From positions 62,001 through 126,000 of the forward strand of contig JAFXAK010000017.1 of NCBI GenBank assembly GCA_017517135.1: a DNA stretch of 64,000 nt, in the 5' to 3' direction. How positions within the stretch are numbered: position 1 is the first letter of the stretch; every line of letters starts with the position of its first letter. The translations under genes and the position numbers were made by a program. The notes under the pieces are model-generated. The model saw only the letters and a list, made by a program, of their open reading frames with translations, was not told where the DNA came from and searched no databases. Source of the DNA: Clostridia bacterium (GTDB lineage: Bacteria > Bacillota > Clostridia > Oscillospirales > Acutalibacteraceae). Shown here one piece after another: positions 4,112 to 63,896 of the stretch.

Positions 4112-4504
4112 ATGGCGTATATGACCGAGCAGAGAAAGCTCCTTTATGAGTTTTTTCAGTCTCATCCGCACGATAAATTCTGTGTCAAGGATATATATGC
4201 TGCCCTTTCTCAATATGATATAAGCCGCAGCGCGATTTACAGGAATCTCTCCGCTATGAAAAAGGACGGACTTGTCCGCTGCGATATAAGCGAGGGCAGC
4301 CGTGATGTTTTCTATCAGTTTGTAAACAGCACCCATTGCTCAAATGCAATACATCTTTCCTGTGTTGAATGCGGCAAAACCTTTCATATGAAAACTTCAT
4401 ATGCAAGTCAGCTGCAGAATGAATTGGCACAGCAAGAGGGCTTCAGCATAAACAAGTCGAAAACAGTTTTATACGGAACCTGCAAGAACTGTAAAAACGG
4501 ATAA
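4112..4504 (+). CDS. Fur-family metalloregulator, probably Zur
   Basis: A 130-residue regulator. The N-terminal winged helix (about 10-60) contains SRSAIYRNLSAMKKDGLV. The C-terminal half carries the structural zinc cysteines CVEC (84-87) and CKNC (124-127) and histidines such as HCSNAIH near 75-81. The RBS GGAGGCG precedes ATG 4112; a second ATG three codons on is possible. It heads an operon with ZnuA-, ZnuC- and ZnuB-like genes and has a palindromic operator on its own promoter. The natural reading is a zinc-sensing repressor that closes the operon when zinc is plentiful. Specificity for zinc rather than manganese is inferred from the neighbours. Confidence 0.85.
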   Translation: MAYMTEQRKLLYEFFQSHPHDKFCVKDIYAALSQYDISRSAIYRNLSAMKKDGLVRCDISEGSRDVFYQFVNSTHCSNAIHLSCVECGKTFHMKTSYASQLQNELAQQEGFSINKSKTVLYGTCKNCKNG

Positions 4505-4514
4505 GGAGAAAATT

Positions 4515-5498
4515 ATGAAAAAGATAACAGCACTTATAATAGTATTAACAATGATAATCACCTGCTTTTGTGCGTGTTCGGACACACCCGCACAAGGCAC
4601 GGACAAATTGAATATAGTTGCAACAACCTTTCCGCAGTATGACTGGGTAAGACAGATTCTCGGTGAGAAGCTCCGGGATGTTGAGCTTACCCTGCTTCTT
4701 GATGACGGCGTGGATTTACACAGCTATCAGCCCACGGTTACAGACCTGGTAACGGTATCCGGCTGCGATATGTTCATATATGTGGGCGGTGAATCGGATT
4801 CATGGGTTGAGGATGCTCTTAAAAATGCAACAAATGAGAATATGACGGTGATAAATCTTATTGAGCTTCTCGGTGAAGAGGTACTCGAGGAAGAAACCGT
4901 TGAGGGTATGCAGAGCGAAGAACACGACCACGAAGAGGGTGAAGAGCACTCCCATGAGGGCGAAAAAGATGAACACATCTGGCTTTCTCTTAAAAATGCC
5001 GTAGCAATATGCGGGCATATCGCTGAAAAGCTCAGCGAAATTGATGCAGAGAATAAAGACATATATAAAGCAAATGCAGACAGCTATATTGAAAAACTCA
5101 ACACTCTAAATAAAGAATATACAGAAGCTGTAACCACAAGTGCATACAACACAATAGTTGTTGCAGACAGATTCCCCTTCAGATATCTTGTTGACGAATA
5201 CAACCTGAATTACTATGCTGCTTTCTCAGGCTGTTCAACAGAAACCCAGGCAAGCTTTGAAACAGTAATTTTCCTGTCGGACAAGCTCGAAGAAAACAAG
5301 CTCGGTGCAGTTATTGTGACAGAAAGCTCAGACGGTTCTGTTGCCAATACTGTTATTTCAAACACAGCCGACAAAAATCAGAAGGTACTCGCCCTCAACT
5401 CAATGCAGTCCGTAACTGCAAGGGATGTTGAAAATAATGTAACATACCTCGGCATTATGCAGGAAAATCTCTCGGTACTTAAAGAGGCACTCAACTAA
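4515..5498 (+). CDS. znuA: Zinc ABC transporter substrate-binding lipoprotein (ZnuA-like)
   Basis: A 327-residue protein of the cluster 9 (TroA/ZnuA) family. The N-terminus is a lipoprotein signal with candidate lipid-anchored Cys near 21. A His/Asp/Glu-rich stretch at about 135-154 (EEHDHEEGEEHSHEG) is the flexible metal-capture loop typical of zinc-specific members and argues for zinc over manganese. VDLHSYQPT near 66-74 supplies the first His ligand. It would bind extracellular zinc and hand it to the ZnuB/ZnuC permease. It follows the Fur-family regulator by 10 bases and precedes the ATPase by 11, so all four genes form one transcription unit. Confidence 0.9.
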   Translation: MKKITALIIVLTMIITCFCACSDTPAQGTDKLNIVATTFPQYDWVRQILGEKLRDVELTLLLDDGVDLHSYQPTVTDLVTVSGCDMFIYVGGESDSWVEDALKNATNENMTVINLIELLGEEVLEEETVEGMQSEEHDHEEGEEHSHEGEKDEHIWLSLKNAVAICGHIAEKLSEIDAENKDIYKANADSYIEKLNTLNKEYTEAVTTSAYNTIVVADRFPFRYLVDEYNLNYYAAFSGCSTETQASFETVIFLSDKLEENKLGAVIVTESSDGSVANTVISNTADKNQKVLALNSMQSVTARDVENNVTYLGIMQENLSVLKEALN

Positions 5499-5509
5499 AG
5501 GAGCAAAAT

Positions 5510-6223
5510 ATGGCTTTATTAACCTGTAAAAATCTCACACTCGGCTATGACAGTACGGTTGTTGCCGCAAATATAAATTTCCAAGTAAATCAGGGCGATT
5601 ATCTTTGCATAATCGGCGAAAACGGCTCAGGCAAAAGCACGCTGATGAAAACAATTCTTCATCTCAAAGCCCCCCTGTCGGGACAGATTATCACGGGTGA
5701 CGGTCTCAAACAGTCCGAAATCGGTTATCTTCCCCAGCAGACCACCGTACAAAAGGACTTCCCCGCTTCCGTAAACGAAATAGTACTTTCGGGGTGCTTA
5801 AACAAATGCGCTCTTCGTCCGTTCTATAACAAGGCAGAGAAAGCCCTTGCAATAGAAAGTATGGAGAAAATGGGCATCACACACTTATCCAAGCGTTGCT
5901 ACAGAGAATTATCGGGCGGTCAGCAGCAAAGAGTTTTGCTTGCAAGAGCACTTTGTGCAACTCAGAAAATGCTCGTTCTCGACGAGCCCGTTGCAGGACT
6001 TGATCCCAAGGTCACAATGGAAATGTATGAGCAGATAAATAAGCTCAACCGCGAATACGGGATAACCGTAATTATGGTTTCACACGACATTTCAGCGGCC
6101 CTCAGATATGCAACTCATATTCTTCACATAAGCCATGAGCCGCTTTTCTTCGGCACAAAGGAAGATTATCTCAAAAGTGCGGCAGGACTTGCTTTCACAA
6201 AGGGAGGTAATGAAGATGCTTGA
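5510..6223 (+). CDS. znuC: Zinc ABC transporter ATP-binding protein (ZnuC-like)
   Basis: A 237-residue ABC ATPase. Walker A is GENGSGKST (36-44), the Q-loop lies in YLPQQ near 73-77, the signature is LSGGQQQR (134-141), Walker B is LVLDEP (155-160), and the H-loop is MVSHD near 190. It energises metal import by the adjacent permease. The gene ends inside the permease start region: stop TGA 6221-6223 overlaps the ZnuB start at 6216, which suggests translational coupling. Confidence 0.92.
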   Translation: MALLTCKNLTLGYDSTVVAANINFQVNQGDYLCIIGENGSGKSTLMKTILHLKAPLSGQIITGDGLKQSEIGYLPQQTTVQKDFPASVNEIVLSGCLNKCALRPFYNKAEKALAIESMEKMGITHLSKRCYRELSGGQQQRVLLARALCATQKMLVLDEPVAGLDPKVTMEMYEQINKLNREYGITVIMVSHDISAALRYATHILHISHEPLFFGTKEDYLKSAAGLAFTKGGNEDA

Positions 6224-7049
6224 TAAACTTATATCTTATTTTCAGTATCCCTTTGTGCAGTATGCGCTTATAGTAGGTGTGCTGATTGCTCTGTGCTCCT
6301 CTCTTTTAGGTGTAACACTTGTATTGAAGCGTTTTTCGTTTATAGGTGACGGTCTTTCACATGTAGCCTTCGGTATTATGTGCGTTGCCGGTATATTAAA
6401 CCTTACAAACGATATGCTGCTTGTTTTACCCGGAACTGTTTTATGTGCCGTTGTACTCATAAGCGGCTCCGAAAAAATACGGCTCAAAGGTGACGCGGCA
6501 GTAGCGATGCTTTCTGTAAGCTCTCTGGCAATAGGCTATCTTATAATGAATCTGTTTTCGTCCTCGAGCAACCTTTCGGGAGATGTGTGCAGTACGCTCT
6601 TCGGCTCAACATCAATTCTCACACTCTCAAAAACAGATGTTTTACTGTGCGTTGTTCTCTCCGTGCTTGTTGTTGCACTCTTCGTTTTGTTCTACAACAA
6701 GATTTTCGCTGTAACCTTTGACGAAAACTTCGCTCTCGCAACGGGTGTCAAGGCAAAGGCATACAATATGCTTATTGCAGTTATAACTGCTGTTATCATT
6801 GTTCTTGCAATGAATCTTGTAGGCTCACTTCTCATTTCCGCACTTATCGTATTCCCCGCATTGTGTGCTATGAGACTTTTCAAGAGCTTCAGACAGGTTA
6901 TTATATGTGCGGCAGTAGTTTCCGTTGTGTGTGCTACCTCGGGCATACTCATTTCCGTACTTATGGGCACTCCTGTAGGCTCAACTATAATTGCCGCAAA
7001 CATTGTTGTTTTCGTTCTCTTCTCAATTATCGGCAAAATAAAAAGATAA
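6216..7049 (+). CDS. znuB: Zinc ABC transporter permease (ZnuB-like)
   Basis: A polytopic membrane protein of 277 residues with about eight hydrophobic helices, of the ABC-3 family. The frame is open upstream to 6135, but AGGGAGGT (6201-6208) is well spaced for ATG 6216 (MLDKLISY), giving the normal family length. An ATG at 6210 is too close to that site. It forms the membrane channel for zinc with the ATPase that overlaps its start by 8 bases. GDGLSHVAFG near 45-54 is the conserved ABC-3 permease segment. Confidence 0.9.
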   Translation: MLDKLISYFQYPFVQYALIVGVLIALCSSLLGVTLVLKRFSFIGDGLSHVAFGIMCVAGILNLTNDMLLVLPGTVLCAVVLISGSEKIRLKGDAAVAMLSVSSLAIGYLIMNLFSSSSNLSGDVCSTLFGSTSILTLSKTDVLLCVVLSVLVVALFVLFYNKIFAVTFDENFALATGVKAKAYNMLIAVITAVIIVLAMNLVGSLLISALIVFPALCAMRLFKSFRQVIICAAVVSVVCATSGILISVLMGTPVGSTIIAANIVVFVLFSIIGKIKR

Positions 7050-7065
7050 AAAAACATAAAAAATT

Positions 7066-7108
7066 AAGGGTTATATCACTTGTCACAGTTGATATAACCC
7101 TTGTTTTT
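7066..7108. terminator. Bidirectional terminator between znuB and the DUF436 gene
   Basis: The 13-base arms AAGGGTTATATCA (7066-7078) and TGATATAACCCTT (7090-7102) are perfect. A T-rich run follows on the plus strand, and an A-rich stretch lies at 7041-7065 for the minus strand. Confidence 0.88.
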
Positions 7109-7118
7109 ATTCGTATTT

Positions 7119-7664
7119 TTACAGCATTTTTTCGTCATAAACAGCTCTCGCACCGCCAATGAACTTAGGACGGGTACGGGCTCCAAGCACTAAAGCTTCG
7201 CCGATTCTGTTGTTTTCAAGTCTTAACGGCACTGCAACCTTTTTAAGGTGCATACCTATCATAGTAAAACCGATGTCTATACCGGCATCCGCTTTGATTT
7301 CCTCAACTGCAACGGGATTGCAGAAATGAGCATAAGCCTGAGTAGCCATTGAGCCGCCTGCTTTCGGCTGAGGTACAACATTTACCTCTTCGGCAAAGGG
7401 TACGGCTTGTTTTTCAATAATAATTGCACGGTTGAGATGCTCACAGCATTGCACGGCAAGAAAAACACCCTTTTCCTTTGCCGTATCATAAAGTCCCTCA
7501 AATACAATTTTTGCCGTCTCGGGGCTTGAATTACTGCCGATAGCAGAGCCGATGATTTCACTCGTTGAACAACCCACAACAACGATATCACCCGTTTTCA
7601 GCCTTGCTTTACCGTAAAGTTCTTCAATCACAGCTTTTGCCTGTAAATAAAGTTGGTTTTCCAT
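7119..7664 (-). CDS. DUF436/UPF0340 family protein (YwlG-like)
   Basis: 181 residues from the ATG whose first base is 7664 (MENQLYLQ), preceded on the minus strand by AGGAGAAAA; an ATG ten codons upstream lies in a hairpin region. The protein matches my memory of the TIGR01440/UPF0340 family (B. subtilis YwlG): VVVGCSTSEIIGSAIG near residues 27-42 and VQCCEHLNRA near 72-81. Its function is not established. The conserved CCEH could suggest metal or cofactor binding, but that is a guess. It follows cysS behind a short hairpin, so transcription is probably partly shared. Confidence 0.8.
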   Translation of the reverse strand: MENQLYLQAKAVIEELYGKARLKTGDIVVVGCSTSEIIGSAIGSNSSPETAKIVFEGLYDTAKEKGVFLAVQCCEHLNRAIIIEKQAVPFAEEVNVVPQPKAGGSMATQAYAHFCNPVAVEEIKADAGIDIGFTMIGMHLKKVAVPLRLENNRIGEALVLGARTRPKFIGGARAVYDEKML

Positions 7665-7682
7665 ATATTTTTCTCCTAAAAT

Positions 7683-7707
7683 AAGGGACTGCATTTCACA
7701 GTCCCTT
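7683..7707 (-). terminator. Hairpin terminator or attenuator between cysS and the DUF436 gene
   Basis: AAGGGACTG (7683-7691) pairs perfectly with CAGTCCCTT (7699-7707). On the minus strand a short ATTTTAG tract follows, and the RBS of the DUF436 gene comes immediately after. This suggests partial termination. Confidence 0.7.
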
Positions 7708-7720
7708 GTTTCAATTTATC

Positions 7721-9121
7721 TCAGCTTCTGTGCCACTTAACGCCCTGGGGGGTGTCTTCGAGGACTATTCCCATTTCGGTGAGCTTGTTTCTGATTTCGT
7801 CTGCTCTTGCCCAGTTCTTTTCTTTTCTGGCATTTGTTCTCTCTTCGATAAGTGCTTCAATTTCGGCATCGTCACCGTTTTCTTCGTCTGCCTTTTCGTT
7901 GTATACAATACCGAGAACACCTGTGAGCTCGTCAAATACCTTGATAGCCGCCTCAACTGCTTCCTTTTCGGGAGCAGAGGTGAGTACGCTCTTGTTAATG
8001 TATCTTACGAGGTCGAAAAGTACGCCTATAGCGTCTGCTGTGTTGAGGTCGTCCTCCATTGCTTCGCAGAACTTCTCAACAAAAGACTGAAGCTCCTTGT
8101 TAAGCTCTGTTATATCTGCACCTGCTACAGCATTCTTGAGTGCGAAATCAAGTGAATCGCGGCAGGTGTGAAGTCTTGTAAGTGAAGCCTTGCACTGAGA
8201 AAGAGAGTCATATGAATAGTTTATGGGGCTTCTGTACTGACAGGATATCATAAGAAGTCTGATAGGCTCATAGCCGAACTGCTTTGCAACATCTCTTACC
8301 GTGAAGAAGTTGCCCTTTGACTTTGACATTTTTTCATTGTCAACAGTAATAAAGCCGTTGTGCATCCAGTAATTTGCAAAGGGCTTGCCGTTGCAGCATT
8401 CGCTCTGTGCAATTTCGTTTTCGTGGTGGGGGAAAACAAGGTCCTGTCCGCCGCAATGAATATCTATTGTTTCACCGAGATATCTTCTTGACATAGCGGA
8501 GCATTCAATATGCCAACCCGGTCTGCCCTGTCCCCAGGGTGACTCCCAATAGGGCTCACCGGGCTTTGAGCCCTTCCAGAGAGCAAAGTCCATAGGCTCC
8601 TTCTTTACCTCACCGATGTTGATTCTTGCGCCTGACATAAGGTCATCAAGGGGCTGATGTGACAGCTTTCCGTATTCATTGAACTTGAGGGGGCTGAAAT
8701 ATACATCGCTTCCTGCCTGATAAGCATAGCCCTTTTCAACAAGATTTTCAATTATGGAAATAATCTCGTCAATATTCTCTGTAGCCTTGGGATGAACGGA
8801 TGCTTCTCTTACATTAAGTCCTGCGGCATCTGTTTTGTATTCCTTAATATACTTTTCGGAAATTTCGGAAAAGCTTACGCCCTCGTCATTTGCACGGTTG
8901 ATGATTTTATCGTCAATATCCGTAAAGTTCTGAACGAAAATTACCTTGTTACCCTTGTATTCAAGATAACGGCGCAAAACATCGAAAACGCAGATGGGGC
9001 GCGCATTACCGATGTGGATATAGTTATAAACCGTGGGACCGCAGGCATAAATTCTTACCTCGCCCTCTTTGATTGTTTTAAGCTCTTCTTTTTGTCTTGT
9101 AAGCGTATTATAAACCTTCAT
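7721..9121 (-). CDS. cysS: Cysteinyl-tRNA synthetase
   Basis: A 466-residue class I aminoacyl-tRNA synthetase that charges tRNA-Cys. The HIGH-type motif is HIGNA (36-40) and KMSKS is at 264-268. Zinc ligands include Cys27 (YACGPT), Cys207 (HIECSAM) and His232 (FPHHENE). The length is normal. The start lies inside the 3' end of cysE with a 14-base overlap, so the two are translationally coupled. The cysE-cysS pairing is common in Firmicutes and links cysteine synthesis with its use in translation. Confidence 0.96.
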
Positions 9122-58978: not shown

Positions 58979-59005
58979 GTGCAGTAGTTTTTGAGGCTAC
59001 TGCAC
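58979..59005 (-). terminator. Terminator of the deoxyribosyltransferase-like gene
   Basis: GTGCAGTAG (58979-58987) pairs with CTACTGCAC (58997-59005). On the minus strand TTTATTTTTTTTG follows. Confidence 0.88.
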
Positions 59006-59011
59006 AATTTG

Positions 59012-59929
59012 TCATTTTAGCATTCCATTCATTTTTTCAGATATCTCTACTAATTTCATAAAACCCTCAGGATTTTGCATAAATCCATTCATCAACTGCA
59101 TCTGCAATGCAGTATCAGGTGATACTTGCGGTTGTGCAGGTTGCATATTTCTAATGATTGCAGCTATGGTATCTGTAGAAATTTTGCCAACATCACTTTT
59201 TACCCCGTTTAGGGTATCTAAAATTTGATATAACAACTGCATGATATCTGCATTTGTATCATCAATATTAGATTCTTCTATTGTTTCTTCATCTAATTCC
59301 GAAAAAGAAAATGATTCAATCGTTTTTATTAGCCTATTTTTAATTTCTTCAACACTATCCAAATCAGTTAAATCATATTCTAATGCACGTATTGTTGTTA
59401 TATCAAACGGCAATGACTCGCCTTTTTTCTTAAGATGAATCATCGGTTTTTTTGTTCTGCTTCTATAACCCATTTCATAAAAAACATTAGGATTATGACC
59501 GGATATATCTGCAATAACCAATTCAGACTTTTCTAAGTGATCAATTATAGTTTGAGTAATTGAATTAGCATCATTAAGTTTATCAACTCTGATAGGATTA
59601 AAATCACAAGCCTCGCAAACAGGTTCAATAATATGTCTAAAAAATTTATCAGAAGCTGAACGAATTTCTGTTCCTTCTGCACCAATTGGACAAATAACAA
59701 AACATTTTTTCATATCTTCTCTCCTTTTTTTTAATAAATATGTTCCTCGGTCAATTTTTTTGATTGAACCGTTCCTTTGTAAGGTGTTGAGCGAGCCAGC
59801 AAATTGTCCTTCTGTGTAATCTGTAATATTTTGATGTCGCAAATATAATTTTATCTCCTGTACAGTATGACTTTGCTGATCAGAAAGATATTCTTTTATT
59901 TTTTCTTGTAATCTTGAACTTGAAATCAT
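59012..59929 (-). CDS. Winged-helix protein fused to a nucleoside 2-deoxyribosyltransferase/TIR-like domain
   Basis: 305 residues from the ATG whose first base is 59929 (MISSSRLQEKIKEYL), with GGAGGTATGG upstream. Residues 1-70 look like a winged helix (TVQEIKLYLRHQ, FAGSLNTLQRNGSIKKIDRG). Residues 73-220 form a Rossmann-like domain: MKKCFVICPIGAEGTEIR, LVIADISGHNPNVFYEMGYRS and KKPMIHLKKKGESLPFDI. The NPNVFYE segment is the hallmark of deoxyribosyltransferase-like and TIR-like nucleotide enzymes found in many antiphage systems; its Glu would be catalytic. A helical tail (221-305) follows. An internal RBS and ATG at 59713 could give the second domain alone. It lies behind an RM enzyme and a Fic protein. 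Confidence 0.75.
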   Translation of the reverse strand: MISSSRLQEKIKEYLSDQQSHTVQEIKLYLRHQNITDYTEGQFAGSLNTLQRNGSIKKIDRGTYLLKKRREDMKKCFVICPIGAEGTEIRSASDKFFRHIIEPVCEACDFNPIRVDKLNDANSITQTIIDHLEKSELVIADISGHNPNVFYEMGYRSRTKKPMIHLKKKGESLPFDITTIRALEYDLTDLDSVEEIKNRLIKTIESFSFSELDEETIEESNIDDTNADIMQLLYQILDTLNGVKSDVGKISTDTIAAIIRNMQPAQPQVSPDTALQMQLMNGFMQNPEGFMKLVEISEKMNGMLK

Positions 59930-59953
59930 ATTTCCATACCTCCATTTGCTTAA

Positions 59954-59982
59954 ATTATAACAAATCATCTTGTGCTTGTCAA
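59954..59982 (-). promoter_or_regulatory. Promoter of the winged-helix/deoxyribosyltransferase-like gene
   Basis: Minus strand: consensus TTGACA (59982-59977), 17 bases, TATAAT (59959-59954). An imperfect inverted repeat (TTGTG...CACAA) spans the -35 and may be the operator of its own winged helix. Confidence 0.88.
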
Positions 59983-60049
59983 CACAAAAATGCAAGAATA
60001 CAAGAAATTTAAAAAAATCTTGCACCCACACCACGCATAAAAATATTCA

Positions 60050-60074
60050 AAGGCTCCTCGCAATGAGAAGCCTT
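60050..60074 (-). terminator. Terminator of the Fic-RM operon
   Basis: Minus strand: AAGGCTTCTC, loop, GAGGAGCCTT, then TGAATATTTTTA. One G-U pair. Confidence 0.72.
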
Positions 60075-60079
60075 ATCAA

Positions 60080-62872
60080 TTACTTAGTCAGTTTTTTATA
60101 CATCCTCATAAGCTCTGCCACACACTCTGATTCGGTGTTGAGTTTACCCCAGAAGCCGTATGCCTGCATAACTGCTTTGTCGTTTGCCTGATGTGCTTTG
60201 CGGAGCTCAACAGGCATAGTAAGCTCGTCATAAAGGTCGGCAAGTGAACAATCAGGATATAAAGCTCTTGCATCAAGTATTGCCTGTGCCGTCTGCTCTA
60301 TTTTTGCTTTCTGCTCGTCTGTCGGTGTCGGCCATGGGAAGTTGTTGTAAACTATATCTTTGGAATAGCGGTAATGTATTCTCATTTTTCCACATACTGC
60401 CCTCGTCCAAGCCATATGAACATTTGATGTTAAAACACCAAAATGATATATCTCTCCCTCAGAAATAACTTTAACTAAATTACTACTTAAAATATCCGGA
60501 TCCATAAAACCAATCGGTATATATTTTCTGGATATTGTAGTTACTTCAGGTATTACGATATACTTGTTTTTCGGAATATTTTCTGTTTGAAAACGGGTTG
60601 GTGTTTCAGCCAATTTTAGTGTAGCTGCTCGCGTACTAGAAAGACGCATTTCTTTAACGGAATTTACCCTTTCCAAACATAATGGCATATTTCGCAGTTC
60701 GTTTGGTGGGCAATCTTTCAAGAACAAACAATATCTAAAATAACCATTTATAAATTCATCAGCTCCAATCCAACGTCTAAAATATATAGCTGATTTGGGT
60801 TCTCTTTTAATAAATTCATTCTTTTCTTCCTCAGAAAACAAATAATGACCGCCATCAATAGGTTGATTGCCAATTCCTATCGTTGGTACATTACAAATAG
60901 GTTTTCCGTGGCTTTCAATAAAAATATTTTCGGCATCTAAAAGATATCCGTTAATATTTTTCACTTTTTTAGATGTGTTATTTTCATATATATATTTGTC
61001 TTTGGGATTGTTGCAATTGCTAAATCCGATAATAACACAATGAACACCAGCTTTTTCTTTAGCTTCGCTATTCCACAAAAATGTTTTGTGTGCAAAATCA
61101 AATCTAATATTCTTTTCAAACAAAGGTTTCCACAAAATTGCTACTTGATCACCTTGTGAAATTGAATTGGTAGAAACGAAAGCACTCTTTATATTTGTAT
61201 TTATTACAAAATCTACAGTTTTCTTATACCAACAAGCAACATAGTCAAGATTACCTGCATTTTTCCATTTTGAACCAAAAACAAAAAGTAAATCATCTTT
61301 CTGTTCTTTACTCATGAGACGAGCACCCACAAACGGCGGATTACCCATAATGTAATCAAGCTTATCCTTAGGTACAACCGTTTCCCAATCAATACGCAAA
61401 GCATTGCCCTCAACAATATTTGCATAAGATTTAAGCGGAAGAAAGTCAAGATTCATATGTATGATATTTTCTGTCTCTTTCATCATCTGACTTTCTGCAA
61501 TCCACAGAGCAGTTTTTGCAACCGTAACAGCGAAATCATTTATTTCTATTCCGTAAAACTGACTGATTGAAACCTTAATAGGCTCTTTTATTGCACTTCC
61601 GCCGCCTAAAATAATCTGTCCCTCAATCTGACCTTTCTGCTCTGCAATAATTGCTTCAAGTGCTTCATTTTCAAGTCGGCGAAGCGAAATGTATGTTTGA
61701 GTAAGGAAATTACCTGAACCGCAAGCGGGATCAAGGAATGTAAGTCCGGCAAGCTTATTGCGGAAGCTATCTAATCTGTCTTCTTTTGTTTTGCTGACCT
61801 TGATATCCTTTATTTCATCAAGCTCTTCTTTGAGTTTATCAAGGAACAAAGGATTTATCAGCTTATGTATATTTTCAATAGAGGTATAGTGCATACCGCC
61901 GCTTCGACGGGTTTCGGGATTCAATGTACTTTCAAAAACAGCACCGAAAATTGTGGGGCTGATAGCTGACCAGTCAAAATCTTCACTTGCTTTACGCAGA
62001 AGCAAATCACGGATATCATCGTTCAGTTGCGGAATTTCAATGTTTTCATCTGCAAAAAGTCCTCCGTTTACATACGGGAATGATGCGAGCATTTCTTCTT
62101 CATAAGGATCACGGTCTTCGGGCTTTGTGTCAAGAATTTTGAACAAAGCAATTAATGCCTTTCGCAGGTCTTTACCTGAAAAAGCTTTTATATAATTATG
62201 GAATTTATTGTGACCGCCGAAGATACCCGCATCCTCTGCATAAAGGCAGAAAACAAGGCGCACACAAAGCATATTAAGGCTTTGTAATGAACGAGGGTTA
62301 GTTTTGTCTATATACTGTTTTAATATCTCGTCATAGAGTATACCTACAAGATTACCTGCCTGAATGGAAACTTCCATTTCTCGTTTGATATTATCATCCC
62401 CTGTGTCAACAAGGAACTGCAGACGGTAATATTCATTCGGCAAATCTTCAAGCAAAATCTGTTCGGGTTCACCGTTTGGTTTTTCCATATCGTAAATAAG
62501 AAATTCATTGAAATTGCAGGTTACAATCCAACGGGGACGCTGTGAATAAGGTAAACCTATTGAATATCTTTGTGCCTGCTGAAACGGTGTAAGCAATGAG
62601 CCGTCTGACTGCTTAATCGCTTTTCTTAAATCCTTGTCACGGCTTTTCTGTTCAACGAGAACATTGGTAGCTGTAATATGTCCGTCAATAAAGCTGGTAT
62701 TATCAATTTTTACTTGTTCTTCAAAGCTTATAAAATGTGTGGGATTTTCTACACCAAGTACATTTCCCAAAAGCTCAATCCAGAACGGCTGACTTTCGCC
62801 CTTTTCATAGCCTCTGTCTTTCCAATATTCCGCAAATGCTTTTGCAGCGGTGTATTTTTGCACATCTTTCAT
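60080..62872 (-). CDS. MmeI-like type IIG/IIL restriction-modification enzyme
   Basis: 930 residues, one chain with both activities. The N-terminal PD-(D/E)XK nuclease is seen as FIDGHI (Asp63) and LVEQKS (Glu74, Lys76). A helical connector follows (LCVRLVFCLYAEDAGIFG, SFPYVNGGLF), then a gamma-class N6-adenine methyltransferase with motif I DPACGSGNFL near 378 and motif IV NPPF near 511. The target-recognition domain is near 640-830, then a C-terminal helical part. It would methylate one strand of an asymmetric site and cut about 20 bases away. The recognition site is not predictable by eye. The recognition part is AT-richer than the flanking genome, suggesting transfer. It lies 2 bases after the Fic gene. 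Confidence 0.9.
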   Translation of the reverse strand: MKDVQKYTAAKAFAEYWKDRGYEKGESQPFWIELLGNVLGVENPTHFISFEEQVKIDNTSFIDGHITATNVLVEQKSRDKDLRKAIKQSDGSLLTPFQQAQRYSIGLPYSQRPRWIVTCNFNEFLIYDMEKPNGEPEQILLEDLPNEYYRLQFLVDTGDDNIKREMEVSIQAGNLVGILYDEILKQYIDKTNPRSLQSLNMLCVRLVFCLYAEDAGIFGGHNKFHNYIKAFSGKDLRKALIALFKILDTKPEDRDPYEEEMLASFPYVNGGLFADENIEIPQLNDDIRDLLLRKASEDFDWSAISPTIFGAVFESTLNPETRRSGGMHYTSIENIHKLINPLFLDKLKEELDEIKDIKVSKTKEDRLDSFRNKLAGLTFLDPACGSGNFLTQTYISLRRLENEALEAIIAEQKGQIEGQIILGGGSAIKEPIKVSISQFYGIEINDFAVTVAKTALWIAESQMMKETENIIHMNLDFLPLKSYANIVEGNALRIDWETVVPKDKLDYIMGNPPFVGARLMSKEQKDDLLFVFGSKWKNAGNLDYVACWYKKTVDFVINTNIKSAFVSTNSISQGDQVAILWKPLFEKNIRFDFAHKTFLWNSEAKEKAGVHCVIIGFSNCNNPKDKYIYENNTSKKVKNINGYLLDAENIFIESHGKPICNVPTIGIGNQPIDGGHYLFSEEEKNEFIKREPKSAIYFRRWIGADEFINGYFRYCLFLKDCPPNELRNMPLCLERVNSVKEMRLSSTRAATLKLAETPTRFQTENIPKNKYIVIPEVTTISRKYIPIGFMDPDILSSNLVKVISEGEIYHFGVLTSNVHMAWTRAVCGKMRIHYRYSKDIVYNNFPWPTPTDEQKAKIEQTAQAILDARALYPDCSLADLYDELTMPVELRKAHQANDKAVMQAYGFWGKLNTESECVAELMRMYKKLTK

Positions 62873-62874
62873 TT

Positions 62875-63774
62875 TCAGCCCTCCAATATTCTCAGATATT
62901 CATCTAATCTCTCATTTACATATTCTGCAATAAGCTCAGTCATTACATCTGCGTTGCCGTCGCGGTAGTAAGCGTCAAAGGCTTCGTAATATCTCATTCT
63001 GTCTGTAAACTTAACATTTATCGGCGGATAACCGCCTCGGATAAGGTCAAGATTCAGGATAAGTCTTCCCGTTCTGCCGTTGCCGTCAATAAAGGGATGT
63101 ATTCCCTCAAATTCAAGATGAAAACGGGCAACACGCTCAATGATATTCATTGTTTTCTCCCGACAGGCGTTATCACAAAGCAGCTGCGTTATTTTCGGTT
63201 CAATCATAAACGGCTGTACAGGCTCTGTATACGCGCCCATAATGCGCACGGGAATACGACGGTAAACACCCTTATCATCGGGGCGGTTCATCAGCACAAG
63301 AGCATGAATATTTTTGATTACGCTTTCAGTCAAATCAAGCTCCTTTGAAGCAATATCCTGCACATACATAAAAGCATCTCTGTGTCCTACGGCTTCAAGG
63401 TGGTCTTTTATAGGCTTCTTGTCAATAGTGATACCTTCAAGTACCATTGCCGTTTCTTTCAGCGTCAGCGTGTTTCCCTCAATAGCATTGGAATTATAGG
63501 TAAATTCAACCATAAATTCTTCTTTAAGTCTTGCAACCTCACCTGCTGTCAGCGGACGAAGAGAGGAAAGTCTGTTCTTCTTATTTTCAATTTCCCTCAA
63601 TATATTGCTGCCTGCACATCTTCCGTCGGCAGGTTTTTGTGCATTTTCGGGAATCATATAGAGCTTTCCTTTTCGGACCGCTCCTTTTATTTTGCCCTCT
63701 GCACAAAGCACTCTCACACGCCTGGGAGAAATCCCCCATTTTTCCGCCGCTTGCGAAACCTTTATATATTCCAT
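62875..63774 (-). CDS. Class II Fic protein with N-terminal helix-turn-helix
   Basis: 299 residues. The N-terminal MerR-like/excisionase helix-turn-helix (about 1-45, ISPRRVRVLCAEGKIKGAV) binds DNA. The autoinhibitory helix is TYNSNAIEGN with S95XXXE99G100, class II. The Fic active site is HPFIDGNGRTGR near 225-236, complete with His, acidic residue and both Arg. It transfers AMP (or another nucleotide part) to a hydroxyl on a target protein. The target is unknown. It is 2 bases upstream of the RM gene and clearly co-transcribed. Its promoter carries two palindromes, so it may regulate the operon. Confidence 0.9.
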   Translation of the reverse strand: MEYIKVSQAAEKWGISPRRVRVLCAEGKIKGAVRKGKLYMIPENAQKPADGRCAGSNILREIENKKNRLSSLRPLTAGEVARLKEEFMVEFTYNSNAIEGNTLTLKETAMVLEGITIDKKPIKDHLEAVGHRDAFMYVQDIASKELDLTESVIKNIHALVLMNRPDDKGVYRRIPVRIMGAYTEPVQPFMIEPKITQLLCDNACREKTMNIIERVARFHLEFEGIHPFIDGNGRTGRLILNLDLIRGGYPPINVKFTDRMRYYEAFDAYYRDGNADVMTELIAEYVNERLDEYLRILEG

Positions 63775-63802
63775 ACAGACTCCTCCGTTTATCAGCTGTT
63801 AC

Positions 63803-63836
63803 GGTATATTATACCTCATTTGAGGAACAAAATCAA
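63803..63836 (-). promoter_or_regulatory. Promoter and overlapping palindromes of the Fic-RM operon
   Basis: Minus strand: TTGATT (63836-63831), 17 bases, TATAAT (63813-63808). The spacer holds the perfect palindrome CCTCATTTGAGG (63814-63825), and the -10 lies in GGTATATTATACC (63803-63815), also a perfect palindrome. Both are candidate operators. Confidence 0.75.
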
Positions 63837-63896
63837 GGCAAATTCAGCAAAATAACAGGTATATTATTCCCAAAAACACAAAAACGGGAACAAAAA

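What the first reader, a model, noticed from the sequence alone, without database searches (positions are those of the whole stretch)
59012..63836. Fic + MmeI-like RM + winged-helix/deoxyribosyltransferase-like block: possible composite defence module
Three minus-strand genes form an accessory block. A class II Fic protein with a DNA-binding N-terminus is 2 bases from a complete single-chain RM enzyme. Behind it, with its own consensus promoter, comes a winged-helix protein fused to a domain with the NPNVFYE motif of nucleoside deoxyribosyltransferase/TIR-like effectors. Type IIL enzymes, Fic proteins and such effectors are each known around defence islands. This exact combination is not one I know as a named system. 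A working idea: the RM enzyme gives the first barrier, the Fic protein controls or backs it up, and the nucleotide-targeting protein is an abortive second layer.
Basis: partly seen in the sequence, partly recalled or inferred. Interest (0 to 1): 0.72.

Follow-up and report, generated by a model that had tools for sequence, protein, structure and literature searches.

The report
Fic-led restriction operon with predicted operator
A DNA-binding Fic enzyme gene heads a two-gene operon with a one-piece restriction enzyme, and a repeated DNA site in its promoter suggests that it switches itself and varied bacterial defence genes, while the third gene beside it looks like an independent neighbour.

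Summary
In detail: HTH-Fic (62875-63774, -), a complete MmeI-like restriction-modification enzyme 2 bp downstream (60080-62872), then a winged-helix + nucleoside-deoxyribosyltransferase/TIR-like gene (59012-59929) behind a 12/12 promoter and a terminator-like hairpin. The three-gene module is not supported: among 250 family genomes only ours has the three together. Fic+MmeI recurs in one other genus (G016). The third gene's relatives are mostly standalone, often mobile; the one fused relative found (Blautia luti) has neither Fic nor MmeI nearby. New: close HTH-Fic promoters carry ATTRTTCCGATAA in the spacer, paired at fixed distance (25 of 27); 50 ATTRTTCC copies against 0.76 in shuffles. Searched by pattern in 230 genomes, 11 of 11 sites with at most 2 mismatches precede genes with the same HTH; 6 of these were in the discovery set, the 5 new ones precede HTH-AAA-ATPase genes (one cut after the HTH). 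Nine of 15 classified downstream neighbours are defence genes of several kinds (MmeI-like, type I RM, Eco57I-HNH, TIR-APAZ/Argonaute, Cas9, PDC-M30A). Best reading: an autorepressing Fic that leads interchangeable defence operons; our own site is a degenerate copy. No function was tested.

The parts
63863..63871 (-). Distal half-site GGGAATAAT (inverted copy, 1 mismatch to CGGAATAAT), 40 nt from the promoter copy
   Evidence: a pair with such spacing and no more mismatches in 0 of 2000 shuffles
63823..63831 (-). Promoter-proximal half-site TTTGTTCCT (2 mismatches to ATTRTTCCG), inside the -35/-10 spacer
   Evidence: compare the family element
63808..63836 (-). Promoter of the Fic-MmeI operon, TTGATT-17-TATAAT (10 of 12)
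62875..63774 (-). HTH_17-Fic, class II (autoinhibited) Fic protein, 299 aa
   Evidence: (PDC-S04 7.5e-37)
60080..62872 (-). MmeI-like (type IIL/IIG) single-chain restriction-modification enzyme, 930 aa
60050..60074 (-). Terminator-like hairpin between the Fic-MmeI operon and the third gene
59954..59982 (-). Consensus promoter of the third gene, TTGACA-17-TATAAT, without the ATTRTTCC element
59012..59929 (-). wHTH + NDT/TIR-like protein, 305 aa (neighbour, not part of the operon)
59012..59713 (-). Possible second product of the same gene: effector domain alone (233 aa), internal ATG at 59713, AGGAG at 59725-59721
   Evidence: same AGGAG-7-ATG in Blautia luti; many standalone relatives start at or near this Met
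58979..59005 (-). Hairpin after the third gene, followed on the - strand by TTTATTTTTTTT
   Evidence: one search lists the stem on the + strand only

Best explanation
Fic and MmeI-like genes form a two-gene defence operon led by an HTH-Fic protein. The HTH is predicted to bind paired ATTRTTCCGATAA sites that overlap the promoter, and so to hold down expression of itself and of the restriction enzyme behind it. The Fic half is an autoinhibited AMPylase that could act as a back-up toxin when control is lost. Close relatives of this HTH-Fic lead unrelated defence genes elsewhere, so it looks like an exchangeable control and back-up gene rather than a specific partner of MmeI. The wHTH-NDT/TIR-like gene next door is a separate transcription unit, probably a nucleotide- or NAD-cleaving effector of prophage-accessory type. 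Shown: gene anatomy, the G016 pairing, the conserved promoter element, its tie to the HTH, the varied partners. Inferred: binding, repression, AMPylation as back-up, effector activity.
For: 2-bp gap and the same pair in another genus. Element: 50 ATTRTTCC copies in 27 promoter regions against shuffle mean 0.76 and maximum 4 in 300; 24 of 27 have at least one; for 26 of 27 a promoter-like match containing TTCC is printed (in L129 in a shifted register). Paired copies (up to 2 mismatches each) in 25 of 27: 12 inverted at 38-41 nt, 13 direct at 19-21 nt. Also in Mycoplasmopsis and Leptotrichia, other phyla, at 55-57% protein identity. Pattern-first: 11 of 11 sites with at most 2 mismatches precede HTH-module genes; 6 of the 11 are Fic promoters of the discovery set, 5 are new and precede HTH-AAA-ATPase genes (one cut after the HTH); reversed-pattern control 0. 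Absent upstream of 12 MmeI and 47 viral NDT/TIR-like genes. Partners: 9 of 15 classified downstream neighbours are defence genes against 0 of 10 upstream genes at E 1e-20, p = 0.003; type I RM also. Own pair: 0 of 2000 shuffles.
Against: The shuffle count was made on largely the same regions in which the element was noticed, so it is not an independent test. The 5 new pattern sites fall into two groups of near-identical proteins. Our own element is degenerate: 3 mismatches over the two half-sites and, by my count, 4 to the search pattern, so that search found nothing in our genome. 20 of 29 close Fic loci have no recognised defence gene directly behind (2 of them with an unscanned neighbour). 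Against distant Fic genes the partner enrichment is not significant (9 of 15 against 2 of 7, p = 0.36). The 10 upstream genes scanned are 10 of 18 such loci, the longer ones, yet shorter than the downstream ones; two gave weak hits (9e-11, 6e-12). No binding, repression or phage phenotype was measured.
Confidence: 0.65

Rival explanations
1. Three-gene composite defence module: RM first, Fic as control or back-up, and the nucleotide-targeting protein as abortive second layer, acting together.
For: The three genes are adjacent, on one strand and all of defence type. A similar RM + HEPN + DOC layering was proposed before (PMC3710099, passages read). Some MmeI genes elsewhere are followed by other effector-like genes: Swt1-type HEPN, DUF4062, PHP/Schlafen.
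Against: The trio occurs together once in 250 family genomes. The third gene has its own promoter, a terminator-like hairpin in front and no shared element. In the loci checked its relatives do not accompany Fic or MmeI.
Confidence: 0.1
2. The Fic is only a toxin or addiction gene that gathers in defence islands; the promoter element autoregulates Fic alone and has no bearing on the gene behind it.
For: 20 of 29 close Fic loci have no recognised defence gene directly behind. The element is present with or without such a gene. Gaps to Cas9 and to one type I methyltransferase are 205-214 bp, room for a separate promoter.
Against: Fic lies 2 bp before both MmeI genes and the TIR-APAZ gene, overlaps the type I R gene of L098 and is within 30 bp of the type I M gene of L104, which makes co-transcription likely there.
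Confidence: 0.26
3. Chance neighbours in a variable chromosomal spot downstream of the purC-like gene.
For: In four relatives with that gene at 90-92% identity, the 11-kb regions fetched differ behind it and lack the block.
Against: The Fic-MmeI pair recurs in G016 with the same order and spacing. Chance remains the likely reading for the third gene.
Confidence: 0.13

Closest known systems
RptR, repressor of type I RM islands (PMC12255303, abstract and passages read)
   Same: A DNA-binding gene tied to RM whose repeated binding sites control the defence promoter.
   Different: RptR is a small repressor with a TAGCTA site, tied to type I RM; here the HTH is fused to a Fic enzyme, the site is ATTRTTCCGATAA, and the partners vary.
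CccR of Yersinia pseudotuberculosis (PMC9755527, abstract and passages read)
   Same: A Fic protein with an inhibitory helix and an HTH that binds an inverted pair near -35/-10 and represses itself.
   Different: HTH is C-terminal there, half-sites AGATAATCAT/ATGATAATCT, a secreted effector; here the HTH is N-terminal and the gene leads defence genes.
C proteins of type II RM systems (as described in a passage of PMC12255303)
   Same: Regulator gene directly upstream of a restriction gene.
   Different: They promote expression at low and repress at high concentration; no enzymatic domain (recalled).
RM loci with DOC/Fic and RloC-type HEPN (PMC3710099, passages read)
   Same: Fic/DOC toxin in RM neighbourhoods, read as layered defence.
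   Different: No operator in the passages read; the partner there is an ABC-HEPN protein.
SoFic anti-phage Fic (PMC12249575, passages read)
   Same: Class II Fic acting as abortive toxin.
   Different: The NCBIfam SoFic equivalog is far from met (34 of 550 bits); here an N-terminal HTH_17; PADLOC PDC-S04 fits better.
NDT/TIR-like N-glycosidases: CBASS TIR effectors, DUF4062 Swarozyc (PMC13174449, abstract and passages read), DNPH1/Rcl
   Same: Same fold class and an invariant NPN...E motif in its own family.
   Different: No cyclase beside it, no DUF4062 match; a wHTH is fused in front.

Membership tests
MmeI-like type IIL RM | N-terminal, helical spacer, methyltransferase, TRD and C-terminal MmeI domains in one chain | tested here: met
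   All five over cut-off
MmeI-like type IIL RM | Nuclease E-x-K and methyltransferase motifs intact | tested here: met
   Aligned (motif roles recalled)
MmeI-like type IIL RM | Cleavage and methylation of a specific site | not testable with these tools
   No assay or methylome
Class II Fic | HxFx(D/E)GNGRxxR active site | tested here: met
   HPFIDGNGRTGR
Class II Fic | Inhibitory (S/T)xxxE(G/N) helix N-terminal to the Fic core | tested here: met
   SNAIEGN, aligned with FICD (motif recalled)
SoFic defence protein | NCBIfam SoFic equivalog cut-off | tested here: not met
   34.3 of 550 bits
RptR-like RM-proximal repressor | DNA-binding gene beside the RM genes | tested here: met
   HTH_17 over cut-off; 2-bp gap
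RptR-like RM-proximal repressor | Conserved repeated site in the promoter | tested here: met
   Met for the subfamily; degenerate in our copy
RptR-like RM-proximal repressor | Homology to RptR and its TAGCTA site | not tested
   RptR itself was not compared; the element found is ATTRTTCCGATAA
RptR-like RM-proximal repressor | Binding and repression shown | not testable with these tools
   Needs EMSA and reporter
CBASS TIR effector | Effector domain similarity | tested here: met
   PDLC00733 1.4e-18
CBASS TIR effector | CD-NTase gene alongside | tested here: not met
   None among the block genes and the next gene downstream by Pfam; the next gene upstream reads as purC (name recalled)
Nucleoside 2-deoxyribosyltransferase | Pfam PF05014 over its cut-off | tested here: not met
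   17.8 of 28.8 bits
Nucleoside 2-deoxyribosyltransferase | Fold | tested here: met
   Foldseek best PDB hits: NDT 3.5e-5, TIR-STING 7.1e-5, DNPH1 8.6e-5; this does not separate NDT from TIR

The most novel reading that the evidence does not exclude
HTH-Fic is a portable guard: a repressor and AMPylase in one protein that keeps whatever immune operon lies behind it (type I RM, MmeI-like RM, short Argonaute with TIR, Cas9) low through paired ATTRTTCCGATAA sites. When a phage removes or inactivates it, both the immune operon and its own gene are derepressed and a toxic AMPylase is made. The same HTH and site are reused with other effectors such as AAA-ATPases.
Probability: 0.3. Interest if true: 0.75.

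Novelty: new variant of a known kind. Interest (0 to 1): 0.5.

Why it matters
Regulation of defence genes is less known than the defences themselves. A promoter element that marks one HTH module across phyla and across partners gives a directly testable regulator, and a handle for finding defence loci by regulatory sequence. It also suggests that a gene next to RM can be control and weapon at once. For the window itself it corrects a three-gene module to a two-gene operon plus a neighbour.

Tried and rejected
Three-gene module as a conserved unit: rejected. CBASS: no cyclase next to it. Precise insertion site: the purC-like gene has different neighbours in four relatives, so the edges of an insertion could not be drawn. 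More wHTH fusions: the viral scan with the two fused proteins found none, and none of the 80 viral loci kept shows the wHTH (best tblastn E 0.38); genome contigs gave only Blautia luti. So the internal start rests on two genes plus the standalone form. Viral scan with Fic found nothing. A shared CAAGAATnCAAG-like stretch upstream of the third gene in the window and Blautia was seen by eye and not pursued; chance is not excluded. MmeI target site was not predicted. Literature: 10 searches showed no paper on this element; one search listed only 20 of 117 papers holding such letters, and none of the 20 titles concerned Fic or defence.

Full report
What is there. The window is part of contig C10 of a 2.27-Mb, 42-contig genome. 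The first two are 2 bp apart. The third follows a terminator-like hairpin (60074-60050) and has a 12-of-12 consensus promoter at 59982. By Pfam, PADLOC and PDB comparison they are a class II HTH-Fic, a complete MmeI-like enzyme and a winged-helix protein fused to an NDT/TIR-like domain. G+C falls from about 43% over Fic to 29-33% over the third gene.

Is it a unit? Searches of the same 250 family genomes, ours included, found the MmeI-like enzyme in 27, a Fic match in 33 (E up to 1e-20) and the third protein in 9 (E up to 1e-5; the best other match is partial, 33-37% identical). Besides ours only G053 has a match to all three, at 32-38% identity and on three contigs. Of the 26 other genomes with MmeI, 7 also have a Fic match, and only in G016 do they share a contig. 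I fetched wider flanks of 12 other MmeI loci and 9 close Fic loci, G016 being in both counts. In G016 Fic and MmeI have the same order and 2-bp gap, at 76% and 67% identity. In the order search 18 of 394 genomes, ours included, have a close Fic at E up to 1e-60. Besides ours none shows a whole MmeI gene in the 1.5-kb flanks; one (L101) has a 125-residue fragment on the other strand.

The third gene. Matches, ours included, were found in 8 of 391 class genomes; further in 6 of 194 genomes of one other family, two of them already, 27 plasmid records, 37 phage records and 91 viral stretches, of which 80 were kept. Most match only the effector domain, and many start at or near the Met that is internal here. 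In the three mobile records opened, the gene lies opposite to most of its neighbours, as prophage-expressed accessory genes do. The one fused relative, Blautia luti (57% identical), has no Fic or MmeI within 10 kb. Both fused genes keep AGGAG-7 nt-ATG at the internal Met although the codons differ, so two products are possible; with two genes this stays a lead. A 24-sequence model (mean pLDDT 81.7, pTM 0.60) matches NDT (3.5e-5), TIR-STING (7.1e-5) and DNPH1 (8.6e-5) structures, TM-score about 0.3 by the whole query because only the effector domain aligns. Asn146-Pro147-Asn148 and Glu152 are invariant in the 24. An N-glycosidase acting on NAD or nucleotides is the likely activity, by inference.

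A conserved element in the Fic promoter. Printing 25 upstream regions of close Fic genes showed TTGATA-TTATTCCGATAATGTGG-TATAAT. In 27 regions of up to 120 bp (those 25 plus Mycoplasmopsis and Leptotrichia), ATTRTTCC occurs 50 times on both strands, against 0.76 on average and 4 at most in 300 dinucleotide shuffles; 18 regions of distant Fic genes hold 1 against 0.27. Since 25 of the 27 are where I first saw it, this measures strength and is no independent test. A second copy lies at fixed distance: inverted at 38-41 nt in 12 regions, direct at 19-21 nt in 13 (half-sites with up to 2 mismatches; I assigned the classes from the printed positions). L097 and L109 are the exceptions, and L109 lacks the promoter copy. 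Mycoplasmopsis cynos and Leptotrichia shahii, other phyla, have three direct copies, some imperfect. The element is absent from 200 bp upstream of 12 MmeI genes, from 47 viral NDT/TIR-like genes and from the third gene's promoter.

Pattern-first test. TTGNYATTRTTCCGATAANNNGGTATAAT with up to 3 mismatches was sought in 230 order genomes. It gave 28 sites, and 0 for the reversed-pattern control. Of the 11 sites with at most 2 mismatches, all 11 precede a gene that begins with the same HTH. Six are Fic genes (one broken), all from the set that gave the pattern. Five are new: four HTH-AAA-ATPase_like genes (two of them scanned; the others by likeness) and one cut by the contig end after the HTH; they form two groups of near-identical proteins. 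Of the 17 sites with 3 mismatches, 7 precede an HTH gene (3 from the discovery set; new are two distant HTH-Fic genes, one HTH-AAA and one broken remnant) and 10 do not, as chance would give. Because the domain behind the HTH changes while the site stays, the HTH is the likely reader of the site. Our own promoter is a weaker copy (4 mismatches to the pattern by my count; one search found no site in our genome), yet an inverted pair at 40 nt with 3 mismatches in all was reached by 0 of 2000 shuffles.

Partners of the HTH-Fic. Of 29 close loci, 17 have a same-strand gene within 300 bp downstream; 15 were classified, 2 (L107, L111) not. Nine are defence genes: MmeI-like (2), TIR-APAZ followed by short Argonaute, Cas9, type I R, type I M (2, one behind a Fic fragment), Eco57I-HNH, and PDC-M30A. 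Upstream, 18 loci have such a gene; the 10 longer ones were scanned and none reaches 1e-20, two giving 9e-11 and 6e-12; p = 0.003, with a bias since they are shorter. Against distant Fic genes, 2 of 7, the difference is not significant (p = 0.36). On plasmids, 8 of 60 matching records were opened; type I RM adjoins in Mycoplasmopsis and Methylobacter, and not in the other six.

How it works, and how far known. A repressor with repeated sites tied to RM is known (RptR), as is an autorepressing HTH-Fic toxin (CccR), and Fic/DOC in RM loci. A Fic enzyme that carries its own reader for a conserved site and leads several kinds of immune operon combines these; I did not see it described in the listings and passages of the 10 searches made. 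I therefore call it a new variant of a known kind. All steps past sequence (binding, repression, AMPylation, defence) are inferred.

Noticed in passing
L235, L237, L238, L250, L251: The same HTH and promoter element precede AAA-ATPase_like (PF09820) genes (L235, L238, L251 scanned; L237 and L250 by likeness), so the regulatory module is reused with another effector.
   Followed up: partly
L090 (G218), 4242-7982: HTH-Fic directly ahead of TIR-APAZ and short Argonaute genes (a SPARTA-like pair).
   Followed up: partly
L077 (G177), 6203-7189: A DUF4062 gene (family recently called a TIR-like NADase) lies 231 bp behind an MmeI-like gene; other MmeI genes are followed by Swt1-type HEPN or PHP/Schlafen proteins.
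   Followed up: no
window 60500-61250: G+C drops to about 30-32% over part of the MmeI target-recognition domain and the end of the methyltransferase domain, against about 38-40% over most of the rest, which might reflect a swapped recognition part.
   Followed up: no
L121, L122, L123: Standalone NDT/TIR-like genes in a Staphylococcus and a Streptococcus phage and a phage-like Streptococcus plasmid, set opposite to most neighbouring genes, like prophage-expressed accessory genes.
   Followed up: partly
window 59713 and L036 10208: Internal start with AGGAG 7 nt upstream kept in both wHTH fusions; possible gene within a gene, compare Rpn (PMC10327210, abstract and introduction read).
   Followed up: partly
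L105 3-1232: An HTH_17-like protein with a weak HipA_C match (0.00087), both below cut-off, upstream of a close Fic gene.
   Followed up: no
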